Shown: piece after piece, positions 739 to 9,014 of the stretch
Layout of the letters: each line of letters opens with the position of its first letter
Position numbering within the stretch: the stretch's first letter is position 1
NCBI RefSeq assembly: GCF_001997295.1
Contig: NZ_CP019605.1
Coordinates: 868,001-932,000 of the forward strand
Origin: Tessaracoccus flavus
GTDB taxonomy: Bacteria; Actinomycetota; Actinomycetes; Propionibacteriales; Propionibacteriaceae
Length of the DNA: 64,000 nt
Reading direction: 5' to 3'
Translations under genes and position numbers: made by a program
Notes under the pieces: model-generated
What the model saw: only the letters and a program-made list of their open reading frames with translations
What the model was told of the DNA's origin: nothing
The model's database searches: none

Positions 739-790
739 CTCCCTGAGCCGCCGCGTGAGCGCTTGCGCGAACCGGCGTGTCGAAGGGTAA
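739..790 (+). repeat. Copy of a GC-rich repeat family (CTCCCTGAG ... TCGAAGGG)
   Basis: The unit begins CTCCCTGAG and ends TCGAAGGGTAAC. It faces an inverted copy that begins GTTACCCTTCGAG near 852, so the two form a large inverted arrangement in the gap between the IS110 remnant and the glycan operon. The rest of the 694-935 gap shows no credible gene. Confidence 0.6.
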
Positions 791-849
791 CGAACCCTCG
801 CCCGCACGCCGCCCCGAGTCGGGGTCAAGGGCGGCGACCGAGGTCGCGG

Positions 850-943
850 CCGTTACCCTTCGAGACGGCCGCCCGGCCTCGCAAGCTCGGCGTGGCGACC
901 TCCTCAGGGAGCGATGACTCGGCATGGCGACCTCCTCAGGGAG
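850..943 (-). repeat. Tandem copies of the same repeat family, running over the ugd stop codon
   Basis: GTTACCCTTCGAG starts the unit. The end block GGCGACCTCCTCAGGGAGC occurs twice, at about 893-912 and 924-943, separated by a short spacer. The second block contains the TGA stop of ugd (936-938), so the repeat sets the C-terminus of that protein. Confidence 0.6.
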
Positions 944-6518: not shown

Positions 6519-7695
6519 CGTGCTGGTCCCTGAGCCTCGCCGGCGACGAAGGAGCCAGCGGGGACGAAGGGCCTCCGTCGCCCTCAGACAGAGCCAACCC
6601 CAGGATGCTGTCCACGACGCCAGACCAGCTGTGGTCCGACACCGCGCGCTCGCGGGCCTTCGCGCCCATCGCGCGGCGCGACTCCGGATCGGCGGCCAAG
6701 CGGTCGAGCGCGCGGGCCAGCGCGGCGGGGTCCGACGGCGCCACCAGGACGCCCTCGTCGGTGATGATCCCCGGGAGCTGGCCCACCGACGACGCCACCA
6801 CGGGCAGGCCGGCGGCGAGGTACTCGTAGACCTTCAGCGGGGAGAAGTACTGGTCGCCGTCCTCGACGGAGGCCGGGTAGGGCGCCACGCCGATGGCCGA
6901 GCCGGCCAGGTGCGCGGGCATCTCCTCGGGGGCGACGGCGCCGCGGAAGTCGACGTCGACGCCCAGTCGGGCGGCCTGCGCCTCGAGCGCGGCCCGCTCG
7001 GGGCCGTCGCCGACGACGCGCACGGTCCACGGCTCGCGGGCCATGCCGGCGGCGTCGATCAGCACTGAGGTGCCGTGCCACGGCTTGAGGGTGCCGACGA
7101 ACGTCACCACGACGTCGTCGTCCTCAGGCTGCGGCAGGATGCGGGTGACGCTGACGCCGTTGGCGACGGTGTGGACGCGGTCGCCGTCGGTGTGGCGGCG
7201 CACCCAGGCGGAGACCGGGTCGGAGACGCAGATGGTGGCCGCGGCGGCGTGCACCTGGGCGCGGAGCGCGGCCCATGCGCCGTTCTCGTCCACCATGTCG
7301 CGGTGCTTCTTCTGCTCGTCGATCAGCGGGGCGTTCACCTCGAGGACGCCGACGGCGTCGCTGGCCGCGGTGACGCGGGCCAGCACGGTGCTGAAGAGGG
7401 AGTAACGCTCGTAGACGAGGTCGGCACCGTCGGCGAGGATCCGGGTGACCATCTCGGCGGAGGCGTCCTGCTGGGCGCGCTCGCGGGCCGCGGGGTCGCC
7501 CTTGGCCACCTTGACGGGCACGACGCGGAGGTCGGCGAGGTCGGCGGGGACGTCGTCGCCGATGCGGGTGGCGTAGACGGTGACGTCGTGGCCGCGCGCA
7601 ATGAGCTCGCGGACGACCTCTTGGATGTGCACCGAGGCGCCCTTGGTGCCGAAGACGGGGATGCCGGGGTCGACGGAGACGTACGCGATCCTCAT
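6511..7695 (-). CDS. GT4-type glycosyltransferase (first of two)
   Basis: 394 aa, GT-B fold. Starts MRIAYVSVDPGIPVFGTKGA with the N-terminal glycine-rich acceptor loop and HIQEVVRELIARGHDV helix. The C-terminal nucleotide-sugar domain has FVGTLKPWHG, VVGDGPER and the E(X7)E-type stretch in EDGDQYFSPLKVYEYLAAGLPVVAS. Cytosolic or membrane-associated, adding a sugar to the operon's glycan; donor unknown. ATG at 7695 overlaps the upstream stop (ATGA). The last 20 or so residues (about 374-389) are encoded by a repeat copy and look unlike any transferase tail. Confidence 0.85.
   Translation of the reverse strand: MRIAYVSVDPGIPVFGTKGASVHIQEVVRELIARGHDVTVYATRIGDDVPADLADLRVVPVKVAKGDPAARERAQQDASAEMVTRILADGADLVYERYSLFSTVLARVTAASDAVGVLEVNAPLIDEQKKHRDMVDENGAWAALRAQVHAAAATICVSDPVSAWVRRHTDGDRVHTVANGVSVTRILPQPEDDDVVVTFVGTLKPWHGTSVLIDAAGMAREPWTVRVVGDGPERAALEAQAARLGVDVDFRGAVAPEEMPAHLAGSAIGVAPYPASVEDGDQYFSPLKVYEYLAAGLPVVASSVGQLPGIITDEGVLVAPSDPAALARALDRLAADPESRRAMGAKARERAVSDHSWSGVVDSILGLALSEGDGGPSSPLAPSSPARLRDQHDG
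6526..6573 (+). repeat. Repeat copy in the 3' end of the glycosyltransferase gene
   Basis: TCCCTGAGCCTCGCCGGCGA followed by GACGAAGGGCC. Encoded on the minus strand as the Ser/Pro-rich tail (GPSSPLAPSSPARLRD) just before the stop at 6511-6513. Confidence 0.6.
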
Positions 7696-9014
7696 GCCTG
7701 GACCTCCTGCAGTTCACGACGCCCTTCGTCGTCGCTGGCGGTTGCTGAGCGTGCGGCGACGAAGGAGCCGTGCGACGAAGTGCGTTCCTCGCCGGCGACG
7801 CTCAGGGAGCGGGGGCTTGCTCCGGTCTGCCATGCGCTGAGGGTGGCGGCCTGGCGGCGGCTGTCGAACTGGTCCTCGATGAGGGCGCGCGCGTTGGCGG
7901 CCATGGCCTGGGCCGGCACCGAGCCGTCGGCGAAGGCCTTGAGCGCAGCGGCCAGACCGTCGACGTCGCCTGGCTCGAGCAGGACGCCGGTCTCGCCGTC
8001 GAGGATCACCTCGGGCAGGCCCGTCACGGCGGTGCCGATGACGGGGGTGCCGATGGCCATCGACTCCAGCACGACGGTGGGGAGGCCGTCGATGTTGCCG
8101 TCTTCGCCAGGCACGCAGGGTGCCGCGAAGACGTCGGAGCCGGCGATGAGGACGCGGATCTCGCTCTGGGTCTGGGGCCCAATGAGTCGTACATTGTCGG
8201 ACAGATCGAGCGACGCGATCTGGGCGTTCAGCTGGGCCGTGAGGTCGCCGTCGCCGGCGATCGTGACGTCGACGGGCACGCCGGCGTCGCGCAGGAGCGC
8301 GGCGGCGGAGATGAGGTCGCCGAAGCCCTTCTTCGGGACGAGCCGCCCGACGGCGGACACGCGCAGCACCTCACCGGCCGAGGCCGGCTCGCGGTACGGG
8401 AAGCGGTCGAGTTCGAGCGCGTTGTACTGCAGCGACACCCGGGAGTCGGTGCCCTCCAGCACGCCCGCGAGGTAGGCGTCGTTGAAGCGGCTGATCGCGA
8501 TGACGCGGTCGGCGTCGGCGCACAGGCGGCGCAGCCACGCGGCGTCGACGGACTCGTGGTAGATGTCCTTCGCGTGGGTCGTCATCGTGTACGGCACGCC
8601 GGTGAGCTTCGAGGCGATCCACGCCATCCGCCCCGCGAGGGTGGCGAAGTGCGCGTGGAGGTGCGTGATGCCGTCGGCCGCGACGGCCTGCGCCAGCTCG
8701 ACGCCCTGGGCCACCTCGTCGCCGGGGAGGGTGGCGAGTTCGGGGAGGATCGCGGCGAAGCGCTCGCGCATGGCCTCGTCGGTGACGGCGTCGGCGATGC
8801 GGGCCCAGAGGTCGGCGCCCTTGGGGTAGCGGCTGATCCACGTGACGCCGCCCTTCACGCGGGCGATCTCGGGGTGGAAGCGCGCGTCGGTGGTGGGGCG
8901 CAGCGCGTAGATGGAGATGTCGTCGCCGTGGGCCTCGCGGGCCAGGATCTCCGTGACGATGAAGGTCTCGGAGAACCGGGGGTAGACCTTGAGGACGTAG
9001 CCGATGCGGCTCAT
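7692..9014 (-). CDS. GT4-type glycosyltransferase (second of two)
   Basis: 440 aa. ATG at 9014 (MSRIGYVLKVYPRFSETFIV) overlaps the upstream stop by 4 nt. The frame continues far upstream, but that part is out-of-frame reading of the neighbour. The YPRFSETFI start and the LHAHFATLAG motif near 120 resemble colanic-acid/WcaL-type GT4 transferases. The C-terminal domain has VGRLVPKKGF, AGDGDL and PCVPGEDGNIDGLPTVVLESMAIGTPVI-like donor-binding sequence. Probably adds a sugar to the operon product. Residues about 401-431 are repeat-derived (RSLSVAGEERTSS ... SDDEGRREL), again an odd tail. Confidence 0.85.
   Translation of the reverse strand: MSRIGYVLKVYPRFSETFIVTEILAREAHGDDISIYALRPTTDARFHPEIARVKGGVTWISRYPKGADLWARIADAVTDEAMRERFAAILPELATLPGDEVAQGVELAQAVAADGITHLHAHFATLAGRMAWIASKLTGVPYTMTTHAKDIYHESVDAAWLRRLCADADRVIAISRFNDAYLAGVLEGTDSRVSLQYNALELDRFPYREPASAGEVLRVSAVGRLVPKKGFGDLISAAALLRDAGVPVDVTIAGDGDLTAQLNAQIASLDLSDNVRLIGPQTQSEIRVLIAGSDVFAAPCVPGEDGNIDGLPTVVLESMAIGTPVIGTAVTGLPEVILDGETGVLLEPGDVDGLAAALKAFADGSVPAQAMAANARALIEDQFDSRRQAATLSAWQTGASPRSLSVAGEERTSSHGSFVAARSATASDDEGRRELQEVQA
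7721..7812 (-). repeat. Repeat copies in the 3' end of the second GT4 gene
   Basis: CCCTTCGTCG at one end, TTGCTGAGC and GACGAAGGAGCC blocks in the middle and CGCTCAGGGAGC at the other end. The mix of both orientations suggests at least two units. All are in frame with the glycosyltransferase. Confidence 0.55.

What the first reader, a model, noticed from the sequence alone, without database searches (positions are those of the whole stretch)
739..7832. Palindromic repeat family that colonises coding sequences of the glycan operon in frame
Copies built from CTCCCTGAG and TCGAAGGG/CCCTTCGTC blocks occur at 739-790, 850-943, 2822-2911, 3412-3594, 6526-6573 and 7721-7812. I saw none in the remaining 56 kb. 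Five of the six clusters overlap coding sequence: the ugd stop, the N-terminus and middle of a kinase-like gene, and the tails of two glycosyltransferases. All keep the frame open and yield recurring peptides such as DRSLSVSARANDEGPP. This recalls Rickettsia palindromic elements inside genes, but in an actinobacterium. Their concentration in one operon suggests local amplification or recombination, and the tails may be new protein parts.
Basis: partly seen in the sequence, partly recalled or inferred. Interest (0 to 1): 0.75.

Follow-up and report, generated by a model that had tools for sequence, protein, structure and literature searches.

The report
In-frame palindromic repeats in sugar genes
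Short hairpin-forming DNA repeats, which in this actinobacterium mostly sit just behind genes, have also entered several genes of one sugar-polymer operon in frame, and related species show the same two kinase genes invaded at other places.

Summary
The window lies in a Tessaracoccus genome. The repeat is a hairpin arm, CCCT-GAGC-[variable]-TCGA/ACGA-AGGG, often in inverted pairs. It is not confined to the operon: 146 exact short copies occur genome-wide. Of 100 clusters placed, 14 supply a gene's stop codon and most others lie between genes, with a 3'/convergent bias; only one outside this operon is inside a gene.

Empty sites in relatives show four net insertions in the operon (126, 225, 117 and, by the better comparison, 63 nt), all multiples of three. 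One splits an APH-like kinase; three sit at gene junctions and keep a stop/start overlap. The operon copies are of a sequence 'dialect' rare elsewhere in this genome but common in some other Tessaracoccus, so the operon may have arrived with them; fossil copies remain possible. The same kinase pair carries other in-frame copies in G061/G014 and, from a sister family with a swapped outer stem, in G002/G003.

In-frame REP insertion is known (Rickettsia RPE; GTAG/CGTC REPs). This is a new actinobacterial variant without a detected RAYT and with a recurrent target operon. Translation, protein effect and mobility route are unproven.

The parts
2..718 (+). degenerate IS110/IS116-type transposase fragment ending 20 nt before the first repeat
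   Evidence: ORF; PF02371 1.8e-6
739..943 (.). composite of inverted arms around a GGGTAACG...GGCCGTTACCC core, downstream of ugd; intergenic except for the ugd stop; core of the home type
   Evidence: 738-870 folds at z -3.87
936..2267 (-). UDP-glucose dehydrogenase family gene (ugd); its TGA stop lies in the CTCCCTGAG of the repeat
2273..3598 (-). APH-like kinase k2; likely start at ATG 3598 overlapping the k1 stop (ATGA); alternative ATG at 3361
   Evidence: PF01636 1.7e-5; alignments; upstream sequences
2822..2947 (-). in-frame insert of about 42 aa in k2; recognisable repeat units at 2822-2911
   Evidence: absent from 14 of 14 orthologues; empty site in L051, net 126 nt
3362..3595 (-). 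5' insert of k2 (net 225 nt): tandem arms at the k1/k2 junction, possibly translated as a 79-aa N-terminal extension
3595..4710 (-). APH-like kinase k1
   Evidence: PF01636 2e-15
4707..6518 (-). ABC exporter, permease and ATPase fused
6511..7695 (-). glycosyltransferase GT-A; 29 aa between the conserved end and the stop, 4-15 aa in 17 relatives, because of an insert around repeat 6526-6573 (63 nt against G030, 56 against G060)
7692..9014 (-). glycosyltransferase GT-B
7698..7817 (-). C-terminal insert of GT-B (net 117 nt), a long arm with extra sequence in its loop; ATGA overlap with GT-A kept
   Evidence: fold z -2.25

Best explanation
A REP/BIME-like family of short hairpin elements spreads in Tessaracoccus by an unknown route for which no RAYT was found. 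Its usual niche is the 3' flank of genes, where it is probably transcribed as an RNA hairpin and sometimes supplies the stop codon. In this tightly packed operon there is little spacer, so insertions landed at stop/start overlaps or in a permissive kinase loop, and those that kept the frame and the overlap survived, adding short peptides that are probably unstructured. Shown: the genome-wide family, its location, empty sites, net lengths divisible by three, the dialect mismatch, other in-frame copies in the same kinases of relatives. Inferred: arrival of the operon from a lineage of the other dialect, tolerance rather than benefit, the RNA role, the mobility route, translation of the inserts.
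For: Copies genome-wide with 0 in the reversed control. 30 convergent of 83 intergenic clusters with both flanks against 52 of 295 spacers, p 8e-4, and 8 divergent against 74 of 295, p 0.002. 43 tandem clusters: median 32 nt to the upstream 3' end, 120 nt to the downstream start, 32 of 43 nearer the 3' end, p 0.005. 14 of 100 clusters supply a stop. Net inserts 126, 225, 117 nt against the sibling and 63 nt against G030, whose -5 overlap is the commonest state, 6 of 18. dN/dS 0.28 for k2, 0.35 for k1. Seven G061 arms: covariation score 0.286 against 0.092, 0 of 500 shuffles, slid versions at most 0.062. Outer stem CCCT/AGGG 290 in G000, GGTT/AACC 23 in the G002 sample. CCCTGAGCN8-38GACGAAGGG: 3 in G000, all in the operon; GACGAAGGGCCCC 2 of 2 in the operon against GTCCGTCGAAGGG 92 and GCTTGTCGAAGGG 129 with none in the operon; in the G061 sample 15, 0, 0. 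Inserts in kinases of G061, G014, G002, G003.
Against: No proof that any insert is translated. At GT-A/ABC the sibling gives 56 nt, not a multiple of three. The dialect split is imperfect: of 3 ACGACGAAGGG in the G000 stretches only 2 lie in the operon, the kinase loop copy ends in a home-type CTTGTCGAAGGG, and the 739-943 composite has a home-type core. The ugd-kinase part is only 72-81% identical to L051, no more than other pieces. In one search the measure 'pairs with a change on both sides' is not unusual (122 of 500 shuffles reach it). Arms are no more stop-free than base-shuffled arms (0.79 against 0.81; G061 0.81 against 0.85). Four of six operon stretches fold no better than shuffles allow (z -0.37, 0.60, 0.00, -1.48). 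The G002 family shows no convergent bias (1 convergent, 4 divergent, 8 tandem). Gene calls come from my own simple caller; cluster positions come from truncated hit lists.
Confidence: 0.7

Rival explanations
1. The operon copies are fossils of an older repeat dialect that once filled this genome and was replaced by the present one; no horizontal transfer was needed.
For: In rpoB, G000 groups with both dialect groups. The GT-A tree (G000+G060, then G030) fits vertical descent with losses. One ACGACGAAGGG lies outside the operon in the fetched stretches. The ugd-kinase part is only 72-81% identical to L051.
Against: CCCTGAGCN8-38GACGAAGGG has 3 matches in the whole genome, all in the operon; fossils should be scattered. 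The sibling lacks the inserts, so they are younger than that split. The GT part is 84% identical to G060, against 68-83% for 13 other aligned pieces.
Confidence: 0.35
2. The kinase pair is a preferred or selected target: repeats are recruited as variable loops that diversify these enzymes, not merely tolerated.
For: Five distinct in-frame sites inside k1/k2 (besides the k1/k2 junction of G000) in 5 of 18 species compared, by two dialects and two outer-stem families. Rough Poisson P 1e-6 for the three G061 copies.
Against: k1 and k2 have the highest dN/dS of six operon genes compared with the sibling (0.35 and 0.28 against 0.11-0.24), which fits simple tolerance. The Poisson background rests on one event and an assumed coding length. 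No functional data.
Confidence: 0.2
3. The repeats are non-coding: gene starts and stops are misplaced and the kinase is split or dead.
For: My caller cut k2 at 2821. N-terminal REP cases are often not coding (PMC3733652, section 15).
Against: The loop insert lies between two conserved halves in one open frame with HRDLHDKQ and LLDLDT kept; dN/dS 0.28.
Confidence: 0.08

Closest known systems
Rickettsia palindromic elements (RPE)
   Same: palindromic repeats fused in frame inside protein genes (PMC2229807, passages)
   Different: other sequence and phylum; here most copies are intergenic and built of variable arms
GTAG and CGTC REPs (PMC3733652; passages, section 4 part 1 of 4, section 15)
   Same: 3' and convergent location, dimers, stop codons supplied by GTAG REPs, in-frame copies inside genes
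   Different: no GTAG or CGTC end tag, no RAYT found, an outer and an inner helix; the word Actinobacteria does not occur in that paper's main text
BIMEs
   Same: units in alternating orientation at regular spacing (abstract of PMC2817692 in the listing); here paired short units start about 82 nt apart
   Different: different sequence; protein binding not tested
IS110-family elements that target REPs, such as IS621 (PMC1525189, passages)
   Same: an IS110-type transposase fragment ends 20 nt from a repeat
   Different: one degenerate fragment seen; insertion into a repeat not shown

Membership tests
RAYT-associated REP | RAYT gene (Y1_Tnp, PF01797) in the genome | tested here: not met
   0 of 9 genomes searched, one of them an incomplete MAG; the control rings in 5 of 14 genomes
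RAYT-associated REP | GTAG tetranucleotide at one end | tested here: not met
   by inspection, arms begin CCCTGAG and end CGAAGGG
CGTC REP | terminal CGTC tag, 8-9 bp stem, 4-5 nt loop | tested here: not met
   by inspection, arms of 27-50 nt in G061 with an outer 4-bp and an inner helix
REP/BIME in the broad sense | many short palindromes, mostly extragenic, 3' and convergent bias, inverted pairs | tested here: met
   in G000; the bias is not seen for the GGTT family in the G002 sample
protein-coding palindromes (RPE-like) | in-frame insertion with repeat-free relatives | tested here: met
protein-coding palindromes (RPE-like) | insert present in the protein made | not testable with these tools
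   no proteome or ribosome data
MITE | terminal inverted repeats with target-site duplication | tested here: inconclusive
   empty sites compared, but flanks are too diverged to fix the boundaries

The most novel reading that the evidence does not exclude
One pair of operon kinases is a recurrent target across a genus: in at least three lineages different palindromic families or dialects have independently entered the same two enzymes in frame, so that the repeats act as a source of new enzyme loops, and their dialect records where the operon came from.
Probability: 0.25. Interest if true: 0.75.

Novelty: new variant of a known kind. Interest (0 to 1): 0.55.

Why it matters
It extends protein-coding palindromes to an actinobacterial genus with many copies and no detected RAYT, and gives natural with/without pairs of the same enzymes, so the effect of repeat-made loops can be assayed directly. 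If the dialects hold up, they could serve as tags of horizontal transfer.

Tried and rejected
Local amplification in the operon: rejected, the family is genome-wide. RAYT-driven REP: no PF01797 in 9 genomes. Special stop-freeness of the arms: rejected, equal to base-shuffled arms. A common strong fold: of eight stretches folded, six from the window, only 738-870 (z -3.87) and 7717-7812 (z -2.25) stand out; the other two were L017:1500-1640, which missed the composite I meant to fold (z -0.30), and the L126 tandem (z 0.56). A G061 'internal' hit at L200 1113-1151 is a chance match by its sequence and was dropped, leaving 31 of 32 clusters. The rpoB tree used 25 of 30 genomes: G060, G029, G005 and G035 gave no match and G062, in pieces, was left out.

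Literature: no title or abstract listed describes this family in Actinobacteria (searches found no paper; some searches listed only part of their hits). I read passages of PMC2229807, PMC3733652 and PMC1525189, and of PMC3733652 section 4 part 1 of 4 and section 15. A structure model of k2 was asked for and never finished, so it is not used.

Full report
Observation. The six clusters exist at the given coordinates and exceed chance. No paired arm occurs in 9001-64000 of the window. The window is G000:C1:868001-932000 of a 3.22-Mb genome. Two named relatives found through the kinase are Tessaracoccus (L051, a T. flavescens MAG; L052, Tessaracoccus sp. MC1679). I infer that G030 is MC1679, because its contig C17 has the same length, 171837. 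L051 and G060 are treated as 'the sibling'; that they are one genome was not checked.

The element. An arm is CCCT-GAGC, a variable stretch, TCGA or ACGA, and AGGG. In the loci printed many arms stand as inverted pairs around a core such as GGGTAACGGCC...GGCCGTTACCC, with further half units in tandem outside. Paired short units start about 82 nt apart. The inner part can form a second helix: in 7 G061 arms of 47 nt, a length class chosen from 39 listed arms, the covariation score is 0.286 against 0.092 in shuffles (0 of 500) and at most 0.062 when slid, though the count of pairs changed on both sides (3) is reached by 122 of 500 shuffles. In the G002 sample the outer stem is GGTT/AACC instead (23; no CCCT among the eight commonest stems; mirror controls 1 each, 6 in all); G061 holds both stems.

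Genome context. The short unit has 146 exact copies in G000 and occurs in 9 of 39 genus genomes, and in 17 of 394 class genomes from 8 of 138 genera. I fetched 60 stretches of G000, 54 around listed copies and 6 controls, and called genes with a simple codon-usage caller (548 genes, 85% coding, window included). 100 clusters resulted: 84 called intergenic (30 convergent, 45 tandem, 8 divergent, 1 at an edge) and 16 touching a gene. Of the 16, 14 are gene ends where the repeat supplies the stop, 11 as CCCTGA, one of them ugd (two of the 14 ORFs are under 100 aa and may be spurious); one is internal, a LytR-CpsA-Psr gene with three 30-nt units; one is the GT-A tail of this operon. Two of the 84 (window clusters 870826 and 871467) are in my view coding, since the caller cut the kinase short. 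Convergent spacers are enriched and divergent ones depleted (30 and 8 of 83 against 52 and 74 of 295; the 295 include the spacers that hold repeats). The six control stretches of about 20 kb hold no arm. Hit lists were truncated, so the 100 clusters are not all.

Insertions in the operon. Against the sibling the DNA alignment breaks at the clusters: net 126 nt in k2, 225 nt at the k1/k2 junction, 117 nt at the GT-B/GT-A junction. At GT-A/ABC the difference is 56 nt against G060 but 63 nt against G030; the overlap of G000 (offset -5) is shared by G030, G004, G002, G003 and G009, 6 of 18 genomes with G000, while no other genome has the state of G060, so I prefer 63. All four are then multiples of three. 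At the junctions this keeps stop/start overlaps, which suggests a constraint from translational coupling (inference). The k2 loop insert is absent from 14 of 14 aligned orthologues and from 17 of 17 others. Catalytic motifs remain. The ATG at 3598 has GAGGGG upstream while the ATG at 3361 has no such sequence, so the N-terminal extension may well be translated.

Recurrence. In a G061 sample of 20 stretches the same kinase pair holds three internal arms (two in k1, one in k2, the latter between HRDLHDKQ and LIDSDT); of the other 28 true clusters one is internal, in a prolyl oligopeptidase whose linker is about 41 residues longer than in 1yr2. G014 shares the first k1 site and has a longer insert at the second. 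G002 and G003 carry copies of the GGTT family in k1, absent from G004. In the G002 sample 2 of 18 clusters in 397 kb are internal, one of them this kinase, in a stretch chosen for it; that family shows no convergent bias. Thus 5 of 18 species compared have repeats inside the pair; some k1 sequences were cut by the fetched stretch. The Poisson value of 1e-6 for G061 is rough: its rate rests on one event and on a coding length that I assumed.

Origin. CCCTGAGCN8-38GACGAAGGG has 3 matches in all of G000, all in this operon, but 64 in G061, 65 in G014, 92 in G029 and 9 in G060. Dialect words mostly split the same way; one of 3 ACGACGAAGGG in the G000 stretches lies elsewhere, and 739-943 has a home-type core. 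The GT part is 84% identical to G060 against 68-83% for 13 other aligned pieces, but ugd and the kinases are only 72-81% identical to L051. In rpoB (25 genomes) G000 groups with both dialect clades; in GT-A it pairs with G060, then G030. Transfer of the operon from a lineage of the other dialect is my preferred reading; fossil copies are not excluded.

Known or new. REPs at 3' ends, as suppliers of stop codons and inside genes in frame are described for GTAG and CGTC families (PMC3733652), and RPE fusions are reviewed in PMC2229807 (passages). This family lacks the GTAG and CGTC tags, and no RAYT was found in 9 genomes. I file it as a new variant of a known kind.

Noticed in passing
genome G000, about 1.20-1.78 Mb: No listed copy of the repeat in about 580 kb (lists truncated) and none in four 20-kb stretches there; possibly the replication terminus side, origin not located.
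   Followed up: partly
window 2-718: Degenerate IS110-type transposase next to a repeat; IS110 elements are known to target REPs (PMC1525189, passages).
   Followed up: partly
L126 (G000 about 2645428-2647303): LytR-CpsA-Psr family gene with three 30-nt in-frame units that give NPSTSSGTTG-like repeats; relatives not compared.
   Followed up: partly
L207 3290-3600 (G014) and window 7721-7812: Arms whose loop holds extra, repeat-like sequence, as if one element had entered another.
   Followed up: no
window 7695-7720: An AGGAGG lies before the GT-A start at the end of the inserted part; the sibling has GGAGC there.
   Followed up: no
window 10393-10767: ISL3-type transposase fragment just beyond the glycosyltransferase genes.
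   Followed up: no
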